From positions 25,417-89,416 of the forward strand of contig QHUS01000048.1 in the NCBI GenBank assembly GCA_003222035.1: 64,000 bases of DNA, in the 5' to 3' direction. The stretch's first letter is position 1. Every line of letters starts with the position of its first letter. Made by a program: the position numbers and the translations under genes. Positions 13,972 to 24,751 of this stretch are shown here, piece by piece. The notes beneath the pieces are model-generated. The model was not told the origin of the DNA. It made no database searches and saw only the letters and a list, made by a program, of their open reading frames with translations. This DNA comes from Gemmatimonadota bacterium (GTDB lineage Bacteria > Gemmatimonadota > Gemmatimonadetes > Gemmatimonadales > GWC2-71-9).

Positions 13972-15198
13972 CTAGCTTATGATGTCCTGCTTTCTGTCAC
14001 GCCGTCGTGCTATCCAGTACAGTGGAATCGCGAGTACTAGCGTGAGCCCGCTCCCGACCCATGCCTGCCCAATCGAGCGCGCCCGCGCGACCGCGCCCCA
14101 CACCGACTGCCCGATCACCCCGCCCGTGCTCGCGAACATCGAGTCGAGCGAAATGATCGTCGCCCGCTGCGCCGACGGGATGTGGGCGTTGAGGTACGCC
14201 TGCTTCACGGGCATCGCGAGCCCGATGGCCGCGCCGTACAGCAGGTAGAGCGACACGACGACGAAGAAGTTCGTCAACAGGCCGCACAACACGATGAGCA
14301 CCACCTGCGCTCCCACCGACACCATCAACAGGCCCGTACGTGTCCGGACGACCCGGGACAGCGGCGCGACGAGGACGTTCCCCGCGATGAGACTCAGGCC
14401 CACGAGCGAGCTGATGACCCCATCCACCCACACGAGGTCGCGTCCCAGCAAGTCGAGGAAATAGCGCTGCCAGCTGTAAAACCCGAAAATCATGAAGCTC
14501 ATCGAGACGAGCGACGCGAGCATCACGGGTCGCACCACGGGATGGCTCAGGCCGTAGCGCAGCCCCTCGACGAACACTCGCTGAAGCTCCTCCGGCACAC
14601 GTCGCAGCTCCAGGGCGCGAGGGGTGTAGCCCAGCTCCGGCATTTTGAACCACGCGAGGGCGAAGAGCGGCACCACGATGGCGGCGCGCACGAGGTACGG
14701 GATGTCGAGGCGGATCTGGCCCAACAATCCGCCGCCGATCGTGCCAAGCAGCATGCCGCCCCCGAAAAACATCTGACCCCGGGCGAATACCCGCTCGAGC
14801 GGTCCGGTGTAGCCCGTGGCCTTCAGCGCGTCTACCAACCAGGCGTCCACGGCCCCCGTGTAGAACGTGTAGCCCAGCCCGAGGAACACGGAGACCCATG
14901 CGAATGCCCAAAAACCCCACCCTCGCCACGCGATCGTCACGTACAGGAGCGTCGTGATGAACAGCGTGACGAGACACAGCAGCAGCGAGACCCGTCGTCC
15001 CACTGTGTCCGCGATCACGCCGGTGGGAATCTCGAACACCATCGAGCCGAGCGTGAACGCCGCGTTCGTCAGAAGCACCTGCTGGATGTCGAGCCCCGCG
15101 TGCATCTTGAAGAGCGTGTCGATCCCCCAGATGAGGGACATCGCCAGGTTGAAGAGCCCGGTGATCGCGTAATACGTGCGTATGATGCTCCCGCTCAT
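13972..15198 (-). CDS. MFS transporter
   Basis: The 408-residue protein has about twelve hydrophobic segments and an MFS motif A-like loop (GVIADTVGRRVSL). The ATG at 15198 overlaps the stop of the DMT gene. It is the last gene of a six-gene minus-strand operon that begins with an EgtD-like methyltransferase and contains an OpuB-type importer. Its substrate is unknown. Early residues IIRTYYAITGLFNLAMSL place the first helix right at the start. Confidence 0.87.
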   Translation of the reverse strand: MSGSIIRTYYAITGLFNLAMSLIWGIDTLFKMHAGLDIQQVLLTNAAFTLGSMVFEIPTGVIADTVGRRVSLLLCLVTLFITTLLYVTIAWRGWGFWAFAWVSVFLGLGYTFYTGAVDAWLVDALKATGYTGPLERVFARGQMFFGGGMLLGTIGGGLLGQIRLDIPYLVRAAIVVPLFALAWFKMPELGYTPRALELRRVPEELQRVFVEGLRYGLSHPVVRPVMLASLVSMSFMIFGFYSWQRYFLDLLGRDLVWVDGVISSLVGLSLIAGNVLVAPLSRVVRTRTGLLMVSVGAQVVLIVLCGLLTNFFVVVSLYLLYGAAIGLAMPVKQAYLNAHIPSAQRATIISLDSMFASTGGVIGQSVWGAVARARSIGQAWVGSGLTLVLAIPLYWIARRRDRKQDIIS

Positions 15199-16052
15199 GC
15201 CGCCACGACCTGAGTATCGGTCCACGACTTGAGCGCGGTCGCCGTGAGTATGACAATGCTTCCGAGCAGAGCCAGCGGGCCCGGGGTCTCGCCGTGCGCG
15301 AGCCAGGCCCATACGGGGCTCAGCACCGGCTCGACCAGGAGATATAACGACGCCTCGAGGGCCGGCACGCGCGTGATGGCGCGGGACAGGAACACGTAGG
15401 CCAACCCGAGCTGAAACACGCCCAGATAAATCACGATCAGCCAGTCGACGGACCGGCCCGCCGCGAAGGGAAGCGCGCCCGGCAGGCACACGAGAAACAC
15501 CATCAGGTTACCGCACGCCGCCGCGGCCGCGATCGGCCCGTGGTCTGCGCCTCCGTCGCGGGCCAGCCACCGGTAGCCCGTCACCGTGAATGCCCAGGCG
15601 ACCGCGCTGCCGGCCGCGAGCACGTTGCCGAGAAAGGGATCGGGTGCGGTGACGAAGTGTCGCTGTCCCCCGACGAACAAGAGCGCCAGGCCGACGGCCA
15701 GCACGGCCATGAACCGCAAGTCCGCGGCGCGCACGCGCTCGTGCAGGAGCCACGGCGCCAGGGCGACCACGAACAGGGGGTTGGTCGCCTGGAGGAAGAC
15801 GGTGTTGGCCGCGGTGGTCAATTTGTTCGCGAACACGAACAGGAGGCCCGCCGCGGCGTACGCCACGCCCACGAGCGGGACACGCCAGCTCCAGCGGGCC
15901 CTGGCTTCGGGGATCAGAGCGAGGATCGCGAGCATCGCGACGAGGGCTCGGACCGCCGCGATCTGCCACGCGCTGAACGCGGACCATTTGATGGCCGCGC
16001 CGGCCGTCGAGAAACACGCGGCGGCGAGTACCAGCTGCAGGCGAGCCTTCAC
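15195..16052 (-). CDS. EamA/DMT-superfamily permease
   Basis: The 285-residue protein has ten membrane segments in two EamA repeats. The first half contains FVFANKLTTAANTVFLQATN, a typical RhaT/RarD-like motif, and the second contains LEASLYLLVEPVLSPVWAWL. Family members are mostly exporters of metabolites or amino acids. The GTG at 16052 overlaps the stop of the binding-protein gene, and the end overlaps the MFS gene. It may export a product made from the imported quaternary amine, but no sequence evidence names a substrate. Confidence 0.9.
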   Translation of the reverse strand: MKARLQLVLAAACFSTAGAAIKWSAFSAWQIAAVRALVAMLAILALIPEARARWSWRVPLVGVAYAAAGLLFVFANKLTTAANTVFLQATNPLFVVALAPWLLHERVRAADLRFMAVLAVGLALLFVGGQRHFVTAPDPFLGNVLAAGSAVAWAFTVTGYRWLARDGGADHGPIAAAAACGNLMVFLVCLPGALPFAAGRSVDWLIVIYLGVFQLGLAYVFLSRAITRVPALEASLYLLVEPVLSPVWAWLAHGETPGPLALLGSIVILTATALKSWTDTQVVAA

Positions 16053-16918
16053 GGGCGCGGCGCCTGGAGCCAGTCCCGCGCGATCCCGGCGATGTCCTTG
16101 TGCTCGACGTCCGCCAGGGCGTTGAGCCGACGCATCTCGGCGTCCGTGATCCGCCCGGCGAGCAGCGCGAGCGCCGTGCCGACCTCGGGGTGCGCGTCGA
16201 GCACCGCCTGCCGTATCACGGGCGCGGCCTCGTACGGCGGGAAGTAGTGCCGGTCGTCCTCGAGAACAACCAGGTCGAGCGCCTCGATCTGACCGTCCGT
16301 CGAGTTGCCGGCGATCACGTCCACCTTCCCTTCCGCCAGCGCGCGGTACGTCAAACCCAAGTCCATCGCAGTGGGTGGCGCGCTGAACCGCAGTCCGTAC
16401 GCGTCCGCCAGGCCGCGGAAGCCGTCGGCCCGCTCCAGAAACTCGTATCCGAATCCCGCCTTCCAGCGGGACGCCACACGCGCCAGATCGGCGATGCGCG
16501 TAAGGCCGTACCGGGTTGCGTCGCGGCGTCGCACCGTGATGGCAAACGTGTTGTTGAAGCCGAACGGCTTGCCCCACGTGAGCCCGAAGCGCCGGGCATA
16601 TTCGGCGGTGACCGCGCGCCGCACGCTGTCCGCGTCGTGCGCCGGCGGAAACTTGAGGACCGCCGTGTACGCAGTCCCCGTGTACTCGACGTACAGGTCG
16701 ATCTGACCGGACGTGATCGCGTGATGACACACGAACGTTCCGCCCAGATGGAACCGCCGCTCGACCGGCAGCCCGGTGCGCCGCTCGATCTGCTGTGCCA
16801 CGATCTCCCCGAGCAGGTCGGACTCGCTGAAGTTCTTCGAGCCCACAACGATCCGGTCGGCGCGGCCGCACCCCGCGAGCAGCGTAGCGACGAAGACGAT
16901 TGACTGTCCGACCGTCAT
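16049..16918 (-). CDS. OpuBC/OsmX-type substrate-binding lipoprotein
   Basis: A lipoprotein signal ends in LAGC, with acylated C17. The mature part is an OpuAC/OpuBC fold that binds glycine betaine, choline, carnitine or related quaternary amines. Family features include VVGSKNFSESDLLGEI at the N-terminus, an LYVEYTGTAY segment, and a GNSTDGQIEALDLVVLEDD region. It is 289 residues, usual for the family. It is the third gene of the ABC set and overlaps both neighbours by four bases. Related EgtU proteins bind ergothioneine, which matters because an EgtD-like enzyme opens this operon. Confidence 0.9.
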   Translation of the reverse strand: MTVGQSIVFVATLLAGCGRADRIVVGSKNFSESDLLGEIVAQQIERRTGLPVERRFHLGGTFVCHHAITSGQIDLYVEYTGTAYTAVLKFPPAHDADSVRRAVTAEYARRFGLTWGKPFGFNNTFAITVRRRDATRYGLTRIADLARVASRWKAGFGYEFLERADGFRGLADAYGLRFSAPPTAMDLGLTYRALAEGKVDVIAGNSTDGQIEALDLVVLEDDRHYFPPYEAAPVIRQAVLDAHPEVGTALALLAGRITDAEMRRLNALADVEHKDIAGIARDWLQAPRP

Positions 16919-17553
16919 TTTCCCCGCCACGCGAGCCTCCGCTCCGCCAACCCCAGCAACCCGTCCGCCGCGAGCGCCATCAGGGCCGCGGGGAGCGCTC
17001 CGGCGAGGATCAGCGTGTCGTCCACAACGGCCACCCCGCGAAAGATGTAGACGCCGAGACCGCCGGCCCCGATCGCGGCCGCGATCGTCGCGGTGCCGAC
17101 GCTGACAACGGTGGCCACCCGCACGCCCGCCAAGATCACGCCGAAGCCGAGCGGCAGCTCGACCTGGGTGAGCAGCTGCCAGTCGGTCATGCCCATCCCA
17201 CGCCCCGCCTCGCGCACGGCGGGGTCGACACCCGCGATCCCCGTGTACGTGTTGCGCACGATGGGCAGGAGGGCGTACAGCACGAGCGCGACGATGGCCG
17301 TCGATGCCCCGATCCCGCCGATGAAGGGAAGCGGGATGAGGAAACCGAACAGCGCGAGACTCGGCACGGTCTGGAACACGTTCGCGAGCCCGAGCACGGG
17401 CCGCTGCCATGCAGGCCGCCGCGTGAGCACGATGCCGAGGGGAATGCCGAGCGCGAACGCCAGGAGCGTCGAGACGGCGACCAGATACAGGTGCTGGGCC
17501 ACGAGTCCCAAGACTTCCTGGGCGTTGCGGGCGTAGAAGGCCAAGAGACTCAT
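16915..17553 (-). CDS. OpuB-type ABC transporter permease
   Basis: This 212-residue inner-membrane permease has about five to six helices. The EAA loop reads REAGRGMGMTDWQLLTQVELPLG, where the ATPase docks. An N-terminal AQHLYLVAVSTLLAFALGIP segment is typical of OpuBB/ProW. The ATG at 17553 is the first methionine before a membrane-compatible sequence. It lies 28 bases after the ATPase stop and overlaps the binding-protein gene. A single permease gene implies a homodimer. Confidence 0.9.
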   Translation of the reverse strand: MSLLAFYARNAQEVLGLVAQHLYLVAVSTLLAFALGIPLGIVLTRRPAWQRPVLGLANVFQTVPSLALFGFLIPLPFIGGIGASTAIVALVLYALLPIVRNTYTGIAGVDPAVREAGRGMGMTDWQLLTQVELPLGFGVILAGVRVATVVSVGTATIAAAIGAGGLGVYIFRGVAVVDDTLILAGALPAALMALAADGLLGLAERRLAWRGK

Positions 17554-17581
17554 GGCCCGCCCCGTGCGCGGCTGAAGCCGC

Positions 17582-18346
17582 TCATGCCGCCGCCATGAAC
17601 GCCCTGCACTCCGGGTGGTCCGAGCGCCGGAACTCCTCCGGCGTCCCGAGGAACGCGAGTCGCCCCTCGTGCATGAGCCCGATGCGCGTCCCCAGACGCA
17701 GGCCCTCGCGCACATCGTGCGTCACGAAGACCATACCCTTGCCGAGTCGACCCTCGAGCGCCTGGAACTCGCGCTGCAGCTCGACGCGCGTGATCGGATC
17801 GAGCGCCCCGAATGGCTCGTCGAGCAGCAACAGCGGTGGATCAGCGGCGAGCGCGCGCGCGACTCCCACGCGTTGGCGTTGGCCTCCCGAGAGCTCGTGC
17901 GGGTACCGCGCCGCAAACCGCTCCGGGTCGAGACCCACGAGCGTCAGCAACTCGCGCACTCGCGCGGCGATGCGCGGCGGCGGCCACCCATCGAGCCGCG
18001 GAACGAGTCCCACGTTCCGCTCCACCGTGAAGTGCGGGAACAGCCCCACCTCCTGGATCACGTAGCCGATCCGGCGCCGCAGCTTCGTCGCCGGCACGTC
18101 AGCCGCCCGTTCCCCCGCGACGCGCACGTCGCCGGCGGTGGGCTCGAGCAACCGGTTGATCAACTTCAGTGTGGTGGTCTTGCCCGACCCGCTGCGCCCC
18201 AGCAGCACGAGCGTTTCGCCGGCGCCGACCGTGAACGACACGTCCTGCACGAGGGCGCGCCCGCCTTCCCGCCCCCGTCCCCCGTCCCTCGTCCCCCGTC
18301 CCGGCAGCTCGTAACTGAGCCCCCGTACCTCCAGGGCGGCCGTCAC
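17582..18346 (-). CDS. OpuBA/ProV-type ABC transporter ATPase
   Basis: The 254-residue ATPase contains Walker A (GRSGSGKTT), a Q-loop in VIQEVGLFPH, the signature LSGGQRQRVG and Walker B (LLLLDEPFGALD) with a following H-loop. It lacks the C-terminal CBS domains seen in osmosensing ProV/OpuA, so direct ionic-strength sensing is not expected. Residues 15-30 are an unusual Gly/Arg/Asp stretch (GRGTRDGGRGREGG) encoded by GTCCCCC-type heptad DNA repeats. This stretch falls between the first beta strands, a tolerant loop. The GTG start overlaps the EgtD-like stop. Confidence 0.9.
   Translation of the reverse strand: MTAALEVRGLSYELPGRGTRDGGRGREGGRALVQDVSFTVGAGETLVLLGRSGSGKTTTLKLINRLLEPTAGDVRVAGERAADVPATKLRRRIGYVIQEVGLFPHFTVERNVGLVPRLDGWPPPRIAARVRELLTLVGLDPERFAARYPHELSGGQRQRVGVARALAADPPLLLLDEPFGALDPITRVELQREFQALEGRLGKGMVFVTHDVREGLRLGTRIGLMHEGRLAFLGTPEEFRRSDHPECRAFMAAA
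18277..18304. repeat. In-frame heptad DNA repeat inside the OpuBA gene
   Basis: Four 7-bp units follow each other on the plus strand: GTCCCCC, GTCCCTC, GTCCCCC and GTCCCGG. Read on the coding strand they are GGGACG-type units and encode the Gly/Arg/Asp loop near the protein start. The family normally has only a short loop here, so an insertion or expansion is likely. Confidence 0.6.
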
Positions 18347-19281
18347 GTCCGACCGGCCAGAACCATGAGAAACCGCTCGTCATCGCTCACGCCTTGCCAC
18401 CGCGCGGCGAGACCTGCATCGGAGAGAATCCGGAGGAACGTATCGGCGGCGTACTTGTACGAGTGGTTCATGGCGACCCGCTCCCCCCGCTCGACGCGCA
18501 TGGCTTCGCCGCCCATGGATGCCTCGACGTCGCGGGCGGCGCGGAAATGCTTGGGGATCAGGTGGAGGCCCGGCAGGCGGGGGTCGTCCGCCGCGCCGAA
18601 GACGAGCTCGCCATCCGTATCCCGAATGCCGACGGCGTTGAGCGGCGCCCACGCGAAACGACGGTTCAGCGGATTGTCATAGCCCGCGACCGTGGTGTCG
18701 CCGGCGTAGATCTCCCCGTCGACGAGCAGCACGTCATCCGGCCGGAGCAGTCGCGCGAGCTCCCGCGCCTCCGCAATGGGATCGAACGCGCCGAGGGTGT
18801 TGCCGATCAGCAGGATGAGGCGCCGTGGGGCTTCGGGCTCGGCAGCGAGCGCCGCCAGGTGGGCGGGCTTGGTGAAGTCAGCCTTGATCCCCTGCGCGGG
18901 GAAGCCCGCGCCGAGCGCGCCCGCGCACGCCATCTCGAGCAGCGCCTGGCTCGTGTCGACGGGGACGTAGGACACGCGCAGACCGCGCTCGCGCAACGCC
19001 TCGAGCAGGAGGAGGTCCTTGTCGCCCTGCCCCGCGCCGAGGCTCACCACCTCGAGAGGGGCGACCGGCAACAGCCGCGCGAGATCGGCGCGGGCGCGTG
19101 CCATGAGAGAGCGTGAGCGCACGAAGTTGCGGTACGCGCCGTCCGAGCAAAGGGCCAGCCACGCGCGCACCGACAGCGGGAACCAGTAGAAGAATTTCTC
19201 GGGGAGACGGCGCTCCCCAAACGCGCGAACAAACTCGTCAGCGAGATCGTTCTCGGTGAGCAGCGCCTGAATCGAGATCAT
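18343..19281 (-). CDS. EgtD-like histidine N-alpha-methyltransferase family protein
   Basis: The 312-residue protein matches the histidine-specific SAM methyltransferase family: VSLGAGQGDKDLLLLEAL for SAM binding, YVPVDTSQALLEMA, ADFTKPAHL, and LILLIGNTLGAFDP. EgtD trimethylates histidine to hercynine, the first step to ergothioneine. The substrate region here (VAGYDNPLNRRFAWAPLN) keeps the YD-P core, but other contacts differ, so the substrate is open. I chose the ATG at 19281; a TTG 39 bases upstream is possible. Its stop overlaps the OpuBA GTG. It is divergent from the Cys-His precursor peptide gene, so it could instead act on that peptide. No EgtB or EgtC is visible. Confidence 0.83.
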   Translation of the reverse strand: MISIQALLTENDLADEFVRAFGERRLPEKFFYWFPLSVRAWLALCSDGAYRNFVRSRSLMARARADLARLLPVAPLEVVSLGAGQGDKDLLLLEALRERGLRVSYVPVDTSQALLEMACAGALGAGFPAQGIKADFTKPAHLAALAAEPEAPRRLILLIGNTLGAFDPIAEARELARLLRPDDVLLVDGEIYAGDTTVAGYDNPLNRRFAWAPLNAVGIRDTDGELVFGAADDPRLPGLHLIPKHFRAARDVEASMGGEAMRVERGERVAMNHSYKYAADTFLRILSDAGLAARWQGVSDDERFLMVLAGRT

Positions 19282-19301: not shown

Positions 19302-19330
19302 TTGACGGGTTCGACGGCAACCCGTAGCAT
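19302..19330 (+). promoter_or_regulatory. Sigma-70-like promoter for the RiPP operon
   Basis: TTGACG (19302-19307) and TAGCAT (19325-19330) are separated by 17 bases, close to TTGACA-N17-TATAAT. A start near 19337 would give a leader of about 39 bases before the precursor ATG. It lies in the 94-base gap to the divergent EgtD-like gene. Confidence 0.4.
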
Positions 19331-19375: not shown

Positions 19376-19468
19376 ATGCAGATCGTCGAGACGCAGGAAC
19401 TCGTCCCCAGCTGTCATCGTCCCGAAATCGTCGAGACGGCGGAGCTGGTACCTACCTGCCACTCCTAA
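19376..19468 (+). CDS. Putative RiPP precursor peptide with two Cys-His repeats
   Basis: A 30-codon gene follows a strong AGGAGG (19366-19371) with 4 bases to the ATG at 19376. The peptide is a duplicated 15-residue unit. The first copy carries QIVETQELVPSCH and the second EIVETAELVPTCH, putting Cys-His at residues 13-14 and 28-29. Comparing 13 codon pairs, six differ only silently, three change to other residues (Q/E, Q/A, S/T) and four are identical; this argues for selection on the peptide. An aldo/keto reductase with a PqqD-like tail and a DUF692 (MNIO) enzyme follow at once. MNIO enzymes modify Cys in precursor peptides (MbnB, TglH). I know no family matching this peptide, and leader and core are not distinct. 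Confidence 0.72.
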   Translation: MQIVETQELVPSCHRPEIVETAELVPTCHS

Positions 19469-19479
19469 CGGAGCGGTCG

Positions 19480-20604
19480 ATGCGCCCGGGGGCCCGGATT
19501 GACGTCGGGCCCCCTTCGCGTTTTCTGGCGCCCGGACCCCGCCTCGGCTTCGGGGCGTGGGCGATCGGGGGAACCGACTGGGGTAGAGCCGGTGACGACG
19601 CCGATCGCCTCGCGACCGTCTGCTATGCGCTCGAGCGCGGCATCACCTTCTTCGACACGGCGCCCGCCTATGGGGACGGCGCTTCCGAGACCCTGCTCGG
19701 CCGGGCACTGCGCTCGGACCGCGCACGCGTCACCATCGCGACCAAGGTAGGCCCGCGTGACGACCCGAGGCGGTCCCTCGAGGCGTCGCTGCGGCGCCTG
19801 GCGACCGAGTACGTCGACCTGCTCCAGTTACACGAGACGCTGAGCGACTGGGAGCGGCAGCTCGAGCAGCTCGTCACACTGCAGCATGAAGGAAAGGCGC
19901 GGGCGGTCGGCCTGTGCAACGCGACGCATCGCCAGCTCGCGCGGGCGCTCGAGATCGCACCCCTCGCCGCGTACCAGGGTCCCTACAACGTGATCGATCG
20001 CGACGTGGAGCAGCGAGAGTTGCCGCTGTGCCGGGACCGGGGGCTCGCGTTTCTCGCCTATCGGCCCCTTGCCTCGGGGTTGCTCACCGGCAAGTACGAC
20101 GCGCCGCCGGCCTTCCCGGAGAACGACCATCGGCGCAAGCTCTATTGGTTCAAAGGAAGAGAGTTCGAGCGCCGACGGGCCGTGGTGGCCGGGCTGCGCC
20201 CGCTGGCACAGGATCTCGACCTGCCGCTCGCCGCACTCGCGCTCGCGTGGCTGCTGGCGCAGCCCGGCGTTTCCATCGTGCTGGCGGGTGCCCGCGGCAA
20301 GGCGCAGGTTGATGACAATCTCGCTGGCACCCGACCCCTGGCACCTGAAACCGTGTCGCGCATCGACGCCCTCGTCACCGCGACATTCCGGCTCCCACGT
20401 GCCACGGAGACGGTCCGGCAGCGGGCCGCGGCCTGGGGGGAGCGCGAGCGGTTCGTGGTCGAGCGGCTGGATGGACGGGCGAGCGCCGAGGCGGTGGCGG
20501 CCGCCTGGACCGACCGTGGCGGGGTGCCAATGGTTGCCGCGCAGGTCAAGGTGTTTTGTGACCAACTCGCCGAGCAGGGGTTAGTAGTAACAGACACCGC
20601 GTAA
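19480..20604 (+). CDS. Aldo/keto reductase with C-terminal PqqD-like domain
   Basis: Residues 20-305 are an aldo/keto reductase TIM barrel with the complete tetrad D59, Y64, K89 and H118, and a late NADPH region (IVLAGARGKAQVDDN). After it comes an extra 65-70 residues ending LDGRASAEAVAAAW, then VKVFCDQLAEQGLV. This has the helix and hydrophobic spacing of a PqqD-type winged helix, the RiPP recognition element that binds leader peptides. That assignment is by pattern, not search. I started at the ATG at 19480, 11 bases after the precursor stop and preceded by GGAG; an ATG at 19372 in the same frame would read through the precursor in the wrong frame. Likely role: redox tailoring of the precursor. 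Confidence 0.85.
   Translation: MRPGARIDVGPPSRFLAPGPRLGFGAWAIGGTDWGRAGDDADRLATVCYALERGITFFDTAPAYGDGASETLLGRALRSDRARVTIATKVGPRDDPRRSLEASLRRLATEYVDLLQLHETLSDWERQLEQLVTLQHEGKARAVGLCNATHRQLARALEIAPLAAYQGPYNVIDRDVEQRELPLCRDRGLAFLAYRPLASGLLTGKYDAPPAFPENDHRRKLYWFKGREFERRRAVVAGLRPLAQDLDLPLAALALAWLLAQPGVSIVLAGARGKAQVDDNLAGTRPLAPETVSRIDALVTATFRLPRATETVRQRAAAWGERERFVVERLDGRASAEAVAAAWTDRGGVPMVAAQVKVFCDQLAEQGLVVTDTA
19488..19514 (+). terminator. Strong hairpin just after the precursor gene (attenuator candidate)
   Basis: GGGGGCCCG (19488-19496) pairs perfectly with CGGGCCCCC (19506-19514) around a 9-base loop, and TTCGCGTTTT follows. It begins 20 bases after the precursor stop, inside the first codons of the reductase gene. 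Such a hairpin could stop most transcripts or protect the upstream mRNA, so that precursor exceeds enzyme. Confidence 0.4.
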
Positions 20605-20614
20605 CGGACGACGG

Positions 20615-21403
20615 ATGACGCAGGTCACGATCGGGGCGTTCTACAACCCCCACCTGGGCAAGGAATTGGCGCAGGCGGATGGCATCGACCATCTCGCAAT
20701 GGCCGACCCGCCGGCGACTGCCGATCCGTGGTGGCCAGCCATCCGCGAGCGTTACACGCTGCTGCTGCACGACTATTTGGGGCAGCTCTCCGAGCCGCTC
20801 GACGAGCGCTCGATACAGCGCGCTCGCGGGCTGGCGGAGCTGTACCGCACGCCCTGGGTGGCCGAGCACTTCCAGTGCCTGCACACCGAGGACGGTCGCT
20901 ACAACCTCAACTACGTCTTCCCGCCGCTCTATACCGAGGAGTTTCTCGACCGCTTTGTCCGCAACGCGAACGCGCTCAAGGGCCGCCTCGACCAGCCGCT
21001 CGTTATGGAGAACATCCCGGGCTTCTTCGACGTCAAGGCAAGCCAGATGCTCGAGCCGGTGTGGCTGCGTCGGTTCTTCGAAGCGACGGGCGTCGGCTTC
21101 CTACTCGACCTGCCGCACGTCTGGCTGGAGGCGCACTACCACGATATTTCGCCGCGGCGCTGGCTCGTAGAGTTCCCCCTCGATCACGTGGTGGAGCTAC
21201 ACGTCGCGGGTGTCGAGCACGACCGGGATCTCGACGGTCCCTGGATCGCGCCCGCCGAGCCGTCGGATGAAATGCTCGACTTCGCCGCGTATGCGGTGAC
21301 CCGGTGTCCGCGGGCGCGCGCGGTCACGTTCGACGCGTTCTCCCCCTCGTTGACCGCCGAGGTCCTCCTCCGAAGCGTCGAGCGGATTCGAGGAGCGCTG
21401 TGA
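20615..21403 (+). CDS. DUF692-family multinuclear iron oxidative enzyme (MNIO)
   Basis: The 262-residue protein follows the DUF692 TIM-barrel pattern: LLHD (H52), VAEHF (E84, H85), VMENIP (E132), LLDLPHVW (D165, H168), ELHVAGVEHD (H196, E201, H202) and VTFDAF (D240). These positions match the iron ligands of MbnB and TglH, though D240 stands where an acidic WD/WE pair is usual and H168 where Asn is common. MNIO enzymes use two or three irons and O2 to remodel Cys or Asp/Asn in precursor peptides, usually with a partner protein. The Cys-His precursor lies 1.2 kb upstream in the same operon and a partner-like protein is two genes downstream. The end overlaps the next GTG. Confidence 0.85.
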   Translation: MTQVTIGAFYNPHLGKELAQADGIDHLAMADPPATADPWWPAIRERYTLLLHDYLGQLSEPLDERSIQRARGLAELYRTPWVAEHFQCLHTEDGRYNLNYVFPPLYTEEFLDRFVRNANALKGRLDQPLVMENIPGFFDVKASQMLEPVWLRRFFEATGVGFLLDLPHVWLEAHYHDISPRRWLVEFPLDHVVELHVAGVEHDRDLDGPWIAPAEPSDEMLDFAAYAVTRCPRARAVTFDAFSPSLTAEVLLRSVERIRGAL

Positions 21404-22599
21404 AAGCGATCGCCTTGCTGGTACTACTGCTGCAGGTAGAGGTTGTAGTGCCCGCGGGCACGCGCATTCCGATCCGCTTCGTACAACGCATCACGAGCGG
21501 AAGAGACACGGTCGGCAGCGAGGTGCTGGTGCAAACGGTGGGGGCGGTGGTGCAGGATTCCTGCACGATCATCCCGCCGTACCTGCGCGCGAAGGGGCGG
21601 ATCGTTCTCTCAAAAGGCGGAGGGCGGTTCGGCCGCCATGGCCAGCTGGGGCTGGAATTCGACTCGCTGGAGATCCGTCGCGGGCGCTGGGTCCCCATCT
21701 CAGGTGTCCTCGACACGCTCGAGTACGCCCATCCGGGGACGCTCACGGATTCCGGGTTCGTGTCCAGCGGAAAGATGTCGGTCGGCGGCGTCGGCAAGAA
21801 GCTCGTGCCCGCGGGCGTTGCGGTGGCGGCGGACTTGGCTGCTGTCCCGGTGGCCGTGATCGGGGGCGTTTCGCTCGCGCGTCGTGGGCCCCCAATGCGC
21901 ATTTTCGTAGGGGAGCTCGGCGGCATCCGGCTCACCGAACCGCTCGTCTGGGCGAGCACGGAGGCGTGCCAGCCCGTGGCTCCGCACGCGGAGACGGCGG
22001 TGTTACCGGACCTGCCAACCTTCATGCCCCGCTCGGAGAACCGTACCGGGACTGTGCTGGGCGACCCCTTCAACGTGCTGTTGCTCGGCACGGCCGGGGA
22101 GATCGACAGCGCGTTCCGGGCCGCTGGCTGGCTCCCTGCCGACAAGCGATCGGTGCTCACGGTGACGCGTGAGATCACCGCCGCGATCGCGAGCCGACCA
22201 GCCAACACGGCGCCCGTGAGCACGCAATACTTCGATGGGCGACCGCAGGAGCTGGCGTACGAGCTCCCCGGACCGAACGTCCGGATTCGTCATCACATCC
22301 GGATCTGGCAGCTGGACAGCCTGTCCCACGTCTGGGTCGGCGCGGCGAACAAGGACGTTGGCGTGATCTTCAAGCCCTGGGAACCCGAGGCCACTCACCG
22401 CATCGAGCCGCACGTCGATTGGGAGCGGGACCGGATCGTGCACGACCTCGAGGCCAGCGGCTGTGCCGACTTGCTGGACTACAAGAGCCTCCCCGGCGCC
22501 ATGACCGAGGGACGCAATGTTTCCGGTCAGAAGCTCTTCTCGGACGGGCGAACCGCTGTGGTGCGCCTGCGATCGTGTAACGACCCGGAAACCCCGTGA
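21400..22599 (+). CDS. Secreted protein with LssY_C-like domain
   Basis: A signal peptide (MKAIALLVLLLQVEVVVPAG) starts this 399-residue protein. An N-terminal beta-rich half follows, with two cysteines that could pair. Residues about 225-375 match the LssY C-terminal domain: DPFNVLLLGTAGEIDSAFRAAGW, then TAPVSTQYFDGRPQELAYE, VWVGAANKDVG and HVDWERDRIVHDL, read as separate segments. The function of LssY_C is unknown; it sometimes follows PAP2 phosphatases. The GTG start overlaps the MNIO stop and the end overlaps the partner gene. That placement inside the RiPP operon suggests an exported accessory factor or binding protein for the product. Confidence 0.76.
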   Translation: MKAIALLVLLLQVEVVVPAGTRIPIRFVQRITSGRDTVGSEVLVQTVGAVVQDSCTIIPPYLRAKGRIVLSKGGGRFGRHGQLGLEFDSLEIRRGRWVPISGVLDTLEYAHPGTLTDSGFVSSGKMSVGGVGKKLVPAGVAVAADLAAVPVAVIGGVSLARRGPPMRIFVGELGGIRLTEPLVWASTEACQPVAPHAETAVLPDLPTFMPRSENRTGTVLGDPFNVLLLGTAGEIDSAFRAAGWLPADKRSVLTVTREITAAIASRPANTAPVSTQYFDGRPQELAYELPGPNVRIRHHIRIWQLDSLSHVWVGAANKDVGVIFKPWEPEATHRIEPHVDWERDRIVHDLEASGCADLLDYKSLPGAMTEGRNVSGQKLFSDGRTAVVRLRSCNDPETP

Positions 22600-23375
22600 C
22601 CGGCGGCCGGACCGACCGGGCCTTGCAGGACGACGTGATCCGCGCCCTGTCCGACGCCCGGTACCGCGCGTCGGCTGAATGGCGCCGCCGTGCGCTCGCG
22701 GACCCCGACCGGGTGGAGCGGTACGCGCGCTTTCTGGCGCGACACTTCTACTACGAGCGTGCCGTCCACTTCTTCAAGTACTCGCGCGCGCTCGCGCGGG
22801 TGACCGGCCGTCGACCCGAAGCCGCTCTCACGAGCTCGGCGTTCGACGCTCTGCTCCCCACCCTCGTGCTCGGCAGCCGGGAGACCGCTGCCGCGGTCGC
22901 ACGAATCGTCGTTGCGTACCTCGGGGCCGGACCCGCGGTGGTGCCGTATCTGCCAGATCTGCTGCGCTACGAGGAAGCGATGATGGTGGTGGAAGCGGGG
23001 TCCCGGGTGTGGCGGGACGGAGGGAATGGGGACGACGGAAGAGGGAGGGGCGTGGCTCCGCGGACAGTCGAGGGTACGGTGCTATTGGAGCTGGCGTACG
23101 ACCTTCCCGCGGTCCTGCCCAAACTGCTGCAGCCCTGGATGGACGTACCGCCGGCCCCCGAGCGGCCTATTAAGCTGCTCGTCGCACGATCGCCACACGG
23201 GCGGGTCGCCGTGGCCCGCAGCGACGAGAGCGTGGCGGCGGTGATCGAGCTTGCGGACGGCAAGCGGACGCTCCAGGACCTCGCCACCGATGCCCGACTG
23301 GACCTCCCCACACTCGAAGCGACGGTCAAGAACCTCGTCGAGTTGGGTGCCGTCCGGTTCTCGACCGGAAGTTGA
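22596..23375 (+). CDS. Putative MNIO partner protein
   Basis: The 259-residue protein has an all-helical N-terminal half (DRVERYARFLARHFYYERAV, then LLPTLVLGSRETAAAVARIV and YLPDLLRYEEAMM). This resembles the HvfC/DUF2063 and MbnC style of MNIO partners that bring the precursor to the enzyme. The C-terminal 55 residues (ADGKRTLQDLATDARLDLPT, then VKNLVELGAVRF) look like a small winged helix. Both assignments are by pattern and not certain. A Gly/Arg/Asp loop near residues 140-153 is encoded by a heptad DNA repeat. The GTG start overlaps the LssY_C stop. A lone hypothetical protein unrelated to RiPPs remains possible. Confidence 0.65.
   Translation: MTGGRTDRALQDDVIRALSDARYRASAEWRRRALADPDRVERYARFLARHFYYERAVHFFKYSRALARVTGRRPEAALTSSAFDALLPTLVLGSRETAAAVARIVVAYLGAGPAVVPYLPDLLRYEEAMMVVEAGSRVWRDGGNGDDGRGRGVAPRTVEGTVLLELAYDLPAVLPKLLQPWMDVPPAPERPIKLLVARSPHGRVAVARSDESVAAVIELADGKRTLQDLATDARLDLPTLEATVKNLVELGAVRFSTGS
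23014..23055. repeat. In-frame heptad DNA repeat inside the partner gene
   Basis: About five degenerate 7-bp units of GGGACGA type follow each other (GGACGGA, GGGAATG, GGGACGA, CGGAAGA, GGGAGGG). They encode a Gly/Asp/Arg loop. The same unit type interrupts the OpuBA gene, on the opposite strand. Confidence 0.5.
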
Positions 23376-23771: not shown

Positions 23772-24227
23772 GTGACCCCCAAGTACGAAAGCGCCGATTT
23801 GCTGCTCAAGCTCTACGACCTGCGCCGTGAGCCGGTGTTGCGCAAGGCCCGCGCGTGGTTCCGCGCGCAGTTCGCGCCCGGCAGCGCGCAGGAGATACTG
23901 ACGTTGTATCGCGGAAAAGCCAGCGCACCCTATCGCATGGTGACGACCTACTGGAACATGGCTGCCGCGCTTGTGCTGCACGGTGCCATCGATGAGCATA
24001 TGTTCGCCGACGTGAACGGCGAGCACATCATGGTGTATGCGAAGATCCAACCGTTCATCGGTGAGCTACGTGCCGCATTCAACAACCCCGGCTACCTCGA
24101 CAAGCTGGAAGAGCTGATCCTGCGGATGCCCGACGCCCAGGCGCGCCTCGCGCGGTTCCAGCGACACGCGCCGTCCCAGAAGGCGGCGTCGAAGCGCCCC
24201 CCCCCCTCTCCCCGGAGGGCCGCATGA
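23772..24227 (+). CDS. Conserved hypothetical protein (DUF-type)
   Basis: I do not recognise a characterised family. The 151-residue protein is mostly helical, with KYESADLLLKLYDLRREPVL and a TYWNMAAALVLHGAIDEHMF segment. The end is Pro/Arg-rich. The GTG at 23772 has GGAGCGG six bases upstream; an ATG at 23709 would overlap the previous gene. The end overlaps the DinB gene by ATGA. Position suggests co-transcription from the upstream operon. Confidence 0.65.
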   Translation: MTPKYESADLLLKLYDLRREPVLRKARAWFRAQFAPGSAQEILTLYRGKASAPYRMVTTYWNMAAALVLHGAIDEHMFADVNGEHIMVYAKIQPFIGELRAAFNNPGYLDKLEELILRMPDAQARLARFQRHAPSQKAASKRPPPSPRRAA

Positions 24228-24751
24228 CCGCCACCGCGATTCCCCGGCCCGCCGCCACCGAGCACTCACCGTATTACGCGACCTACATCACCAAAGTCCC
24301 CGACGGCGACGTGCTCAAGATGCTGGAAGAGCAGCGCCGCGAGACGCAAGCGCTGCTGGCAGGCGTGTCCGACGCCAAGGCCCTGCACCGGTACGCGCCG
24401 GGCAAGTGGAGCGTCAAGGAGGTGATCGGTCACCTGTCGGACACCGAACGGGTGTTCTGTTACCGCGCGCTGACCTTCGCGCGCGGCGACGAGACCGCGT
24501 TGCCGGGCTTCGACGAAAAGGGCTGGACGCCTGCGGGGCGGTTCGATGGCCGTTCCCTCATGGATCTCGCCGGCGAATTCGACGCCGTGCGACGCGCGAC
24601 GATCGCGCTGTTCTCGGGGATGGACGCGGAAGCGCTGGCGCGTCGCGGGACGGCCAACAAGAACCCGATCACGGTCCGCGCGCTCGCGTGGATCATTGCC
24701 GGGCACGAACGTCACCACGTCGCGATACTGCGCGAGCGCTACCTGGCATGA
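24224..24751 (+). CDS. DinB/YfiT-family putative metal-dependent hydrolase
   Basis: The 175-residue four-helix-bundle protein shows the DinB histidine pattern: H70 in VIGHLSDTERVF and a late GHERHHVAILRER motif. These three histidines normally bind a divalent metal. Family members include thiol S-transferases using bacillithiol or mycothiol, and DNA-damage-induced proteins of unknown activity. Both ends overlap neighbours by ATGA, so it belongs to the operon that runs to the MaoC gene. Confidence 0.87.
   Translation: MTATAIPRPAATEHSPYYATYITKVPDGDVLKMLEEQRRETQALLAGVSDAKALHRYAPGKWSVKEVIGHLSDTERVFCYRALTFARGDETALPGFDEKGWTPAGRFDGRSLMDLAGEFDAVRRATIALFSGMDAEALARRGTANKNPITVRALAWIIAGHERHHVAILRERYLA

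What the first reader, a model, noticed from the sequence alone, without database searches (positions are those of the whole stretch)
19376..23375. Putative new RiPP system: duplicated Cys-His precursor, aldo/keto reductase, MNIO and partner
A 30-residue gene with a strong ribosome site encodes two 15-residue units ending in Cys-His. Directly downstream, without large gaps, come an aldo/keto reductase with a PqqD-like tail, a DUF692/MNIO enzyme with its metal-ligand pattern, an exported LssY_C protein and a partner-like helical protein. MNIO enzymes remodel Cys in peptides (MbnB, TglH). The combination with an aldo/keto reductase and this repeat peptide is not one I know. It suggests a doubly modified Cys-His product, possibly a metal chelator. 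The product chemistry is an inference.
Basis: partly seen in the sequence, partly recalled or inferred. Interest (0 to 1): 0.95.

Follow-up and report, generated by a model that had tools for sequence, protein, structure and literature searches.

The report
Peptide pathway using cysteine or selenocysteine
Neighbouring bacterial genes encode a 30-residue peptide with two Cys-His units beside a predicted iron enzyme, its likely partner, a predicted methyltransferase and a predicted betaine importer, which together likely turn it into a small modified product; in three relatives the cysteine codon is a UGA followed by a hairpin, predicted to insert selenocysteine, so their product would contain selenium.

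Summary
In detail: a 30-aa ORF with two Cys-His units, an aldo/keto reductase, an MNIO (PF05114), an LssY_C protein and an MNIO partner lie in one run at 19376-23375. The precursor is conserved: whole in 25 of 27 homologous loci from Gemmatimonadota and Acidobacteriota, with two to four P[T/S/A]CH units, and under purifying selection. Three things change the picture. (1) The reductase is not core: absent from one Gemmatimonadota and all seven Acidobacteriota loci. (2) The cluster reaches further: a divergent EgtD-like methyltransferase accompanies all 25 whole precursors, with a betaine-type importer behind it in 15 loci; in one acidobacterium everything forms one co-directional run. (3) In three Acidobacteriota genomes the Cys codon is UGA, followed by a hairpin fitting the bacterial SECIS model; all three carry tRNA-Sec and SelA. 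Best reading: MNIO and partner oxidise Cys or Sec beside His, and a freed piece is methylated to a betaine-like compound. The chemistry is inferred. Sec-encoded RiPP precursors are already reported for a radical-SAM system (SbtM, selenobacteriocin); I saw no report of one with an MNIO.

The parts
19376..19468 (+). precursor peptide gene, 30 aa, two 15-residue units each with Cys-His
   Evidence: sequence; conserved in relatives; purifying selection
19480..20604 (+). aldo/keto reductase with a C-terminal, possibly RRE-like tail; optional
   Evidence: PF00248 E 1.2e-60; PqqD 17.6 bits, below cut-off; AF2 of the tail pLDDT 90.8, no PDB match at E<=0.001
20615..21403 (+). MNIO (DUF692) enzyme of a distinct clade
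   Evidence: PF05114 93.1 bits; TglH, 3bww and MbnB in the PDB by profile; clade members 53-86% identical to the queries, next MNIOs 34% or less apart from one 53-residue stretch at 39%
21400..22599 (+). LssY_C-domain protein with a signal-like N-terminus (read from the sequence); optional
   Evidence: PF14067 E 2.4e-39; in 9 of 27 loci
22596..23375 (+). MNIO partner protein (PME-type-2-like): helical domain plus RRE-like domain
18343..19281 (-). EgtD-like SAM methyltransferase (Methyltransf_33), divergent from the precursor
   Evidence: PF10017 E 4.1e-23; with all 25 whole precursors of the scan; EgtD structures by profile
17582..18346 (-). ABC ATPase of a quaternary-amine (ProV/OpuB-type) importer
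   Evidence: TIGR01186 260.3 bits, below its cut-off 326.6
16915..17580 (-). ABC permease of the same importer
   Evidence: TIGR03416 E 1.1e-26, below cut-off
16049..16918 (-). substrate-binding lipoprotein, OpuBC/EgtUC family
   Evidence: PDB: acetylcholine and nicotine sensor proteins E about 1e-59, EgtUC E 3e-51, OpuCC/OpuBC E 3e-49
15195..16025 (-). DMT-type permease, neighbour; role unknown
   Evidence: TIGR00950 E 8.6e-18, below cut-off
13972..15200 (-). MFS transporter, neighbour; stays behind the methyltransferase where the ABC genes are absent or moved (L018, L019)
   Evidence: labelled PAP2like; gene start approximate
19302..19330 (+). sigma-70-like promoter match before the precursor
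   Evidence: 9 of 12 positions; shuffles mean 0.0; a consensus match only
19488..19515 (+). strong hairpin at the 5' end of the AKR gene
   Evidence: folds of window, L013 and L003, z -1.8, -1.8 and -3.2; not scored as a terminator

Best explanation
This is a RiPP-type gene cluster in which the MNIO iron enzyme with its partner likely oxidises the Cys, or in some relatives a predicted UGA-encoded selenocysteine, that stands beside His in each unit of a ribosomal peptide, after which a freed piece would be N-methylated by the EgtD-like methyltransferase and taken up again by the betaine-type importer. Steps: (1) shown by sequence: the precursor carries one to four P[T/S/A][C/UGA]H units, two here. 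(2) Inferred from homologues: the partner's RRE-like domain holds the peptide and feeds the Cys/Sec to the MNIO irons. (3) Inferred: MNIO oxidation at Cys/Sec; a 5-thio- or 5-selenooxazole is one concrete candidate, since other MNIOs make 5-thiooxazoles and the radical-SAM enzyme SbtM converts both Cys and Sec peptides by loss of four hydrogens. (4) Inferred: in Gemmatimonadota the AKR reduces an intermediate carbonyl. (5) Inferred: proteolysis (no protease gene assigned) frees a small carboxylate-bearing product. (6) Inferred from the retained EgtD carboxylate clamp: the methyltransferase methylates its amine to a betaine. (7) Inferred from family: the OpuB/EgtU-type importer recovers the betaine. 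The likely use is as a redox or metal-handling small molecule with sulfur or, where Sec is inserted, selenium.
For: Conserved precursor: whole in 25 of 27 loci of the genome-contig scan, N/S 0.73 against 3.52 expected in Gemmatimonadota and 0.67 against 3.49 in six of the seven Acidobacteriota Cys-type loci. Methyltransferase in 25 of those 25, divergent. Co-occurrence in a 394-genome draw: 17 genomes have this MNIO (E<=1e-110, next best genome 6e-20) and 18 this methyltransferase (E<=1e-28, next best 1.5e-17): the same 17 plus G027, whose contig ends inside the AKR and which has the precursor. Importer: directly behind the methyltransferase in 15 of 27 loci; co-directional MT-ATPase-permease-SBP-precursor-MNIO-partner in L074 and ATPase-permease-SBP-precursor-MNIO-partner in L075; next to the MT in another orientation in G301. 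Partner has the TglI/NGO1945 fold. UGA at the Cys codon in all 3 L074-type loci held, each followed by a hairpin fitting the bSECIS model (model read in passages of PMC13188914); tRNA-Sec with anticodon tca 3 of 3, SelA above cut-off 3 of 3, SelB 2 of 3, SelD with in-frame UGA 2 of 3. Methyltransferase keeps the EgtD carboxylate contacts Tyr56, Tyr206, Ser284 (11 of 11 sequences aligned; roles from passages of PMC8593015). 5-Thiooxazole by MNIOs: PMC12668002, passages. SbtM: PMC11002830, section 14 read whole.
Against: No product, mass shift or Sec insertion was observed. The importer is not seen near L018, L021-L027 or, within 10 kb, L076. An importer does not obviously belong to a producer. 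The methyltransferase fails EgtD's cut-off (69.4 bits against 290.9) and has lost Asn166 (Ala in 11 of 11) and Glu282 (Asn or Ser in 11 of 11). No protease was identified. The UGA type rests on three related precursors. G753 (L076) has no SelB or SelD hit over cut-off (1.9-Mb assembly). Sec machinery does not separate the types: most Cys-type genomes have it too. In Gemmatimonadota the last unit is CHS or CHA, so its His is not C-terminal. Synthetic Sec in the TglA peptide inhibits TglHI (PMC9016710, passages), so Sec is not automatically an MNIO substrate.
Confidence: 0.42

Rival explanations
1. Captophorin/bufferin- or methanobactin-like metal chelator: MNIO turns each Cys into a thiooxazole or oxazolone-thioamide (Sec into the selenium analogue), with His as extra ligand; the peptide stays whole and binds copper or another metal, and methyltransferase and importer only accompany it.
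For: The largest MNIO groups make 5-thiooxazole peptides tied to copper (PMC12668002, passages; PMC12452194, abstract and sections 13, 17, 18). Repeated Cys-His units suit metal binding. NCBIfam: BufB 84.7 bits for the window's MNIO and 95.8, its best, for the L074 MNIO.
Against: All bufferin/ApyH/HvfB scores are far below their cut-offs (310, 400, 360). The partner is not of the DUF2063 type that goes with 5-thiooxazole. The precursor has no hydrophobic signal stretch. Metal binding explains neither the methyltransferase co-occurrence nor a single Sec unit.
Confidence: 0.3
2. The methyltransferase and ABC genes form an unrelated osmolyte operon that is a mere neighbour; the RiPP system is precursor, MNIO and partner alone.
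For: The importer looks like ordinary choline/betaine importers and is not seen near L021-L027. A divergent position does not need a shared pathway.
Against: The methyltransferase tracks the MNIO in 25 of 25 loci and 17 of 17 genomes (related genomes, not independent events), lies behind the partner in the same direction in L076 and in one co-directional run in L074. This is strong for the methyltransferase, weaker for the importer.
Confidence: 0.15
3. The UGA in L074-L076 is a plain stop: those peptides end in LVPT and the hairpin is incidental, so there is no selenocysteine.
For: No peptide was measured. In the same three loci 30 of 829 UGA triplets (the three themselves included) have a hairpin of 7 or more pairs at -9 kcal/mol or better, and 4 of 25 Cys-type loci have one of 6 or more pairs at -7.5 or better.
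Against: UGA replaces Cys exactly, with PT before and His plus a stop after it, in three genomes; 3 of 3 hairpins have G in the first two loop positions, spacing 19-24 and 7-9 pairs, with a paired C-G to A-U change. The same rule applied to five known Sec genes (SelD) accepts 4 of 5, missing that of G544 at -6.9. Sec machinery is present. The MNIO clade has its own signature, IPRYF in 62 of 63 proteins against 0 of 53 and 0 of 120 in the other lists.
Confidence: 0.1
4. The methyltransferase acts on the peptide itself (Cys thiol, His imidazole or C-terminal carboxylate) rather than on a freed amino acid.
For: Asn166, which holds the amine of free histidine in EgtD, and Glu282 (imidazole side, recalled) are lost in 11 of 11 sequences.
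Against: The carboxylate clamp is kept, which internal residues cannot use; it would fit the C-terminal His of Acidobacteriota and UGA-type precursors only.
Confidence: 0.3

Closest known systems
Selenobacteriocin / thio(seleno)oxazole RiPPs (SbtM, TIGR04081)
   Same: RiPP precursor with an in-frame UGA and a Sec insertion element directly behind it; the enzyme takes Cys and Sec peptides (PMC11002830 section 14; table row in PMC13188914; original paper not held).
   Different: Radical-SAM-SPASM enzyme and SGUG motif with two Sec there; MNIO plus partner and one PTUH unit here. The L074 precursor matches no NCBIfam model.
Captophorins: bufferins, oxazolin, fontiphorin (BufB/FonB, DUF2063 partners)
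   Same: Gene order precursor-MNIO-partner; Cys motifs, repeats.
   Different: No signal stretch, no EGKCG, partner without a DUF2063 hit, equivalog cut-off not met.
Aminopyruvatide system (ApyH/ApyI)
   Same: Best NCBIfam matches of the window's MNIO (99.1 bits) and partner (24.9 bits).
   Different: Both far below the cut-offs (400, 200); ApyH acts on a C-terminal Asp (recalled; PMC10635010 seen only in a search listing), here the motif is Cys-His.
3-Thiaglutamate/pearlin system (TglHI)
   Same: Partner fold closest to TglI; MNIO aligns to TglH; a scaffold peptide that yields a small molecule.
   Different: Cys is encoded, not added by a PEARL; EgtD-like methyltransferase and importer. Synthetic Sec inhibits TglHI, whereas relatives here appear to encode Sec.
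Ergothioneine/selenoneine pathways (EgtD, EgtU)
   Same: EgtD-like methyltransferase with kept carboxylate clamp; importer family of EgtU.
   Different: EgtD cut-off not met, Asn166/Glu282 lost; a ribosomal Cys/Sec-His peptide and an MNIO in place of EgtB or SenA (the last two recalled).

Membership tests
MNIO (PF05114) | Pfam gathering score | tested here: met
   93.1 bits against 25
MNIO (PF05114) | multi-iron centre and oxygen-dependent activity | not testable with these tools
   several His/Glu/Asp columns shared with TglH and 3bww are invariant in 13 sequences; which of them bind iron is recalled
ApyH / BufB / HvfB equivalogs | NCBIfam curated cut-offs | tested here: not met
   window 99.1/400, 84.7/310, 48.2/360 bits; L074 82.1, 95.8, 61.6
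MNIO partner, PME-type 1 | DUF2063 Pfam signature | tested here: not met
   no hit above cut-off
MNIO partner, PME-type 2 | fold related to NGO1945/TglI without the DUF2063 signature (definition from PMC12452194 section 18) | tested here: met
Bufferin precursors | N-terminal Sec signal peptide | tested here: not met
   read from the sequence, no hydrophobic stretch; no predictor run
Pearlins | PEARL enzyme adds the Cys | not tested
   Cys is encoded in the precursor; no PEARL search was made
Selenobacteriocin (TIGR04081) | NCBIfam model | tested here: not met
   no NCBIfam family at E<=1 for the L074 precursor with UGA as Sec
EgtD (TIGR03438) | equivalog cut-off | tested here: not met
   69.4 (window) and 57.2 (L074) against 290.9 bits
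EgtD | carboxylate contacts Tyr56, Tyr206, Ser284 | tested here: met
   Y50, Y201, S274 invariant in 11 of 11
EgtD | Asn166 and Glu282 | tested here: not met
   Ala 11 of 11; Asn or Ser 11 of 11
Quaternary-amine ABC importer (OpuBC/EgtUC) | homology of the binding protein | tested here: met
   E 3e-51 to EgtUC, 3e-49 to OpuCC/OpuBC
EgtU (ergothioneine-specific) | ergothioneine-specificity residues | not tested
   no alignment to EgtUC was printed
Bacterial selenoprotein gene | UGA aligned with Cys and bSECIS (loop 3-9 nt, G in first two, spacing 16-37, at most -7.5 kcal/mol) | tested here: met
   3 of 3 UGA precursors; -12.4, -10.1 and -12.1 kcal/mol with 5-nt loops
Bacterial selenoprotein gene | tRNA-Sec, SelA, SelB, SelD in the genome | tested here: met
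   met in full in G544 and G527; G753 has tRNA-Sec and SelA only
Bacterial selenoprotein gene | Sec found in the peptide | not testable with these tools
   needs expression or 75Se labelling
RRE/PqqD-like tail of the AKR | Pfam PqqD cut-off or clear fold match | tested here: inconclusive
   17.6/23.4 bits; hhalign to the partner's C-terminal domain probability 19%, E 0.0012; Foldseek TruD E 0.4, lasso B1 E 2.7

The most novel reading that the evidence does not exclude
A ribosomal route to sulfur- and selenium-containing histidine betaines: a Cys-His or Sec-His peptide is the scaffold, the MNIO joins the chalcogen to the neighbouring imidazole, the product is released, N-trimethylated by an EgtD relative and recovered by an EgtU-type importer. 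This would be an ergothioneine/selenoneine-like pathway built by RiPP logic, with the first iron-oxygenase enzymes that work on genetically encoded selenocysteine.
Probability: 0.12. Interest if true: 0.95.

Novelty: new variant of a known kind. Interest (0 to 1): 0.82.

Why it matters
If Sec is inserted, the MNIO family, known for Cys chemistry, has a selenium branch with its own clade (63 protein clusters), beside the radical-SAM thio(seleno)oxazole system already reported. It gives a natural Cys/Sec pair of substrates for one enzyme family, a direct handle on the MNIO mechanism, where synthetic Sec so far acted as an inhibitor of TglHI. The linked EgtD-like methyltransferase and betaine importer suggest a small-molecule product rather than a peptide chelator, which is testable with a few genes. 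Such precursors escape annotation: they are 27 to 46 residues long in all loci but L020, and may carry an in-frame UGA.

Tried and rejected
AKR as core enzyme: rejected; L028 (and L043, the same contig) has precursor then MNIO directly, and L021-L027 have no AKR. AKR tail as proven RRE: left inconclusive. LssY_C as core: rejected, 9 of 27 loci. Viral contigs: no relative. Plasmids: 298 records, all under 60% identity, the ten listed at 28-32%. Sec machinery as a yes/no marker of the UGA type: not discriminating; SelB above cut-off in 25 of 28 handles, tRNA-Sec over 64 bits in 25 of 28, Cys-type genomes included (the 28 handles are 27 genomes, G306 and G396 being one). More UGA loci: the classes of G544 (38 genomes) and G753 (41) and a 327-genome phylum draw that overlaps one search gave no new one. 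Rfam on L074-L076: nothing above threshold; no covariance model was built from three sequences. First fold of the hairpins used ill-placed stretches, cutting that of L075 (z -2.1, -0.3, -2.6); one search replaced it. Script 67 used a wrong SelD motif and printed nothing; one search replaced it. Ergothioneine specificity of the binding protein could not be judged.

The check showed this to be wrong: SbtM/selenobacteriocin. I therefore lowered interest (0.88 to 0.82), the best explanation (0.45 to 0.42) and the novel case (0.15 to 0.12), and raised the thiooxazole-chelator rival (0.25 to 0.3). What stays: no held paper with MNIO and EgtD; selenoprotein with MNIO gave 3 unrelated papers; the table of 119 selenoprotein families in PMC13188914 (section 7, parts 1 and 2 of 3 read) names no MNIO-linked precursor; the rows listed showed none. 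Most subscription papers, all figures and supplements were not seen; Fig. 5b of PMC12452194 might contain this MNIO cluster. PMC12257519 was looked at in passages.

Full report

2. The precursor is real. A scan of GTDB genomes gave 27 loci with a close MNIO (57-86% identity; 20 Gemmatimonadota, 7 Acidobacteriota). The precursor is whole in 25 of 27; L010 begins inside it and in L016 none was found. Units: two in the Gemmatimonadota loci, four in L020, three in L021-L027; the start codon of L020 is uncertain. Codon changes are mostly silent (nonsynonymous/synonymous 0.73 against 3.52 expected for 17 distinct Gemmatimonadota sequences; 0.67 against 3.49 for L021-L026). A search with an Acidobacteriota precursor found 11 predicted proteins of the kind, a few of them altered at the end.

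3. What belongs to the cluster. By gene mapping over the 27 loci: the partner lies behind the MNIO (or behind LssY_C) in 25, the contig ending first in L007 and L027. The AKR is full-length in 17 of 20 Gemmatimonadota loci, partial in L016 and L020, absent in L028, and absent in all 7 Acidobacteriota loci. LssY_C is in 9 of 27. Upstream and divergent, 18343-19281 encodes a Methyltransf_33 protein of the EgtD family; it is present in 25 of the 25 loci with a whole precursor, in L027 with one gene between. In a 394-genome draw of the class, 17 genomes have the MNIO clade and 18 the methyltransferase clade, the same 17 plus G027, whose contig ends inside its AKR and carries the precursor.

4. The importer. 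Behind the methyltransferase, on the same strand, lie an ATPase, a permease and a binding lipoprotein of the quaternary-amine family. They stand directly behind it in 15 of 27 loci, all Gemmatimonadota (in L002 only part of the ATPase is on the contig), elsewhere in L019, and are not seen near L018 or L021-L027. In the acidobacterium L074 the order is methyltransferase, ATPase, permease, binding protein, precursor, MNIO, partner, all in one direction; L075 shows ATPase, permease, binding protein, precursor, MNIO, partner up to its contig end; L076 has precursor, MNIO, partner, methyltransferase and no importer in the 10 kb fetched. In G301 the ABC genes lie next to the methyltransferase in another orientation. 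The link therefore survived rearrangement in separate lineages.

5. UGA in place of Cys. In L074, L075 and L076 the precursors read MKKSLERKAVDEGVVVVEKANLVPT-UGA-H-stop, MTELREVLLDEVLLDVVERENLVPT-UGA-H-stop and MQEELKAQEEILPLEAVVEQKNLVPT-UGA-H-stop, against LVPTCHS in the window. L074 and L075 match NCBI proteins named as Acidobacteria MAGs (contig lengths 75114 and 4446); G753 comes from the phylum draw around an Acidobacteriales genome. Downstream hairpins: CCCGGCT-GGTTC-AGCCGGG at spacing 24, CCCGGCT-CGTAG-AGCTGGG at 24, GAACCGGCT-CGTGT-AGCTGGTTC at 19. They fit the published bSECIS limits (passages of PMC13188914). Controls: at 7 or more perfect pairs and -9 kcal/mol or better, 30 of 829 UGA triplets in these loci match (the three included), at the loose setting 67 of 829; 4 of 25 Cys-type loci have a hairpin of 6 or more pairs at -7.5 or better, two of them a repeat-like element. 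The same rule accepts 4 of 5 SelD genes with in-frame UGA; that of G544 itself falls short at -6.9. The three precursors are related, so these fractions should not be multiplied. tRNA-Sec with anticodon tca is present in all three genomes and in the window's own, SelA in 3 of 3, SelB above cut-off in G544 and G527, SelD with an in-frame UGA in G544, G527 and the window's own genome. G753 shows neither SelB nor SelD above cut-off; it is only 1.9 Mb. The L074-type MNIOs form a set of 63 protein clusters at 63% or more identity to L074 (120 rows listed of 819); 62 of 63 carry IPRYF, against 0 of the 53 further rows and 0 of the 120 rows listed for the window's MNIO. Only three of these have a visible precursor, so that the whole clade is Sec-type is a prediction.

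6. Methyltransferase site. EgtD holds the carboxylate of histidine with Tyr56, Tyr206 and Ser284 and its amine with Asn166; Glu282 is named among the important residues (passages of PMC8593015). In the alignment of 11 family members the three carboxylate contacts are invariant, Asn166 is Ala in all, Glu282 is Asn or Ser in all. So the enzyme probably binds a carboxylate-bearing compound that is not free histidine. This is an inference from sequence.

7. Mechanism. I take the MNIO-partner pair to oxidise the Cys or Sec beside His. A 5-thio- or 5-selenooxazole is a concrete candidate: the captophorin MNIOs make 5-thiooxazoles (PMC12668002, passages), and the radical-SAM enzyme SbtM takes four hydrogens from Cys and Sec peptides alike, with a thiooxazole shown for Cys (PMC11002830, section 14). 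Against it, those MNIOs pair with DUF2063 partners, and the partner here is of the other type. The AKR, where present, would reduce a carbonyl intermediate; a small piece would be freed, methylated and recovered by the importer. Only the anatomy is shown; the exact reaction, the cut and the methyltransferase's substrate are open. The bold version, chalcogen transfer onto the imidazole to give ergothioneine/selenoneine-like betaines, rests on the Cys/Sec-His adjacency together with EgtD and EgtU relatives, and has no direct evidence. TglHI is inhibited by a synthetic Sec substrate (PMC9016710, passages), so a natural Sec substrate would need an adapted enzyme; the IPRYF change may be such an adaptation.

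8. Known or new. MNIO RiPPs are a known kind, and none of the NCBIfam MNIO equivalogs is met. Sec-encoded RiPP precursors are also known: selenobacteriocin with SbtM (the original paper is not held). The landscape paper PMC12452194 (abstract, sections 13, 17, 18 and a term search) has no word beginning with gemmatimonad, acidobacteri, egtd or methyltransferase in its main text; its figures and supplements were not seen. The selenoprotein table of PMC13188914 (parts 1 and 2 of section 7) names no MNIO-linked precursor, and searches listed none. The combination MNIO, Cys/UGA-His units, EgtD-like methyltransferase and betaine importer is what I have not found described. I rate it a new variant of a known kind, with a small chance of something categorically new.

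Noticed in passing
G000:C10:8563-9489 (about 16 kb before the window start on the same contig): The window's own genome has a full selD with one in-frame UGA and a hairpin TGGCGCA-GGTCT-TGCGCCA downstream, so it is a likely Sec user although its precursor is Cys-type.
   Followed up: partly
window 19488-19515, L003, L013: A strong hairpin lies at the 5' end of the AKR gene in the three loci folded; it may set the ratio of precursor to enzymes.
   Followed up: partly
L020 2117-2380: The AKR is reduced to an early part running into its last residues: an internal deletion or an assembly fault.
   Followed up: no
L024 and L025, just after the precursor: Both carry a GTAGAGACG-type inverted repeat directly behind the precursor, which looks like a small repeated element.
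   Followed up: no
L024, L025, L026 downstream of the partner: A superoxide-dismutase-like gene follows the cluster in these Acidobacteriota, a possible redox link; named from recall of the sequence start.
   Followed up: no
window 24224-24751: A DinB_2-family gene follows the cluster here and in several Gemmatimonadota loci; role unknown.
   Followed up: no
L074 8578-8616: A hairpin with a T run (AAGGACCCTC...GAGGGTCCTTTTTTT) lies between the UGA precursor and the MNIO, terminator-like by eye.
   Followed up: no
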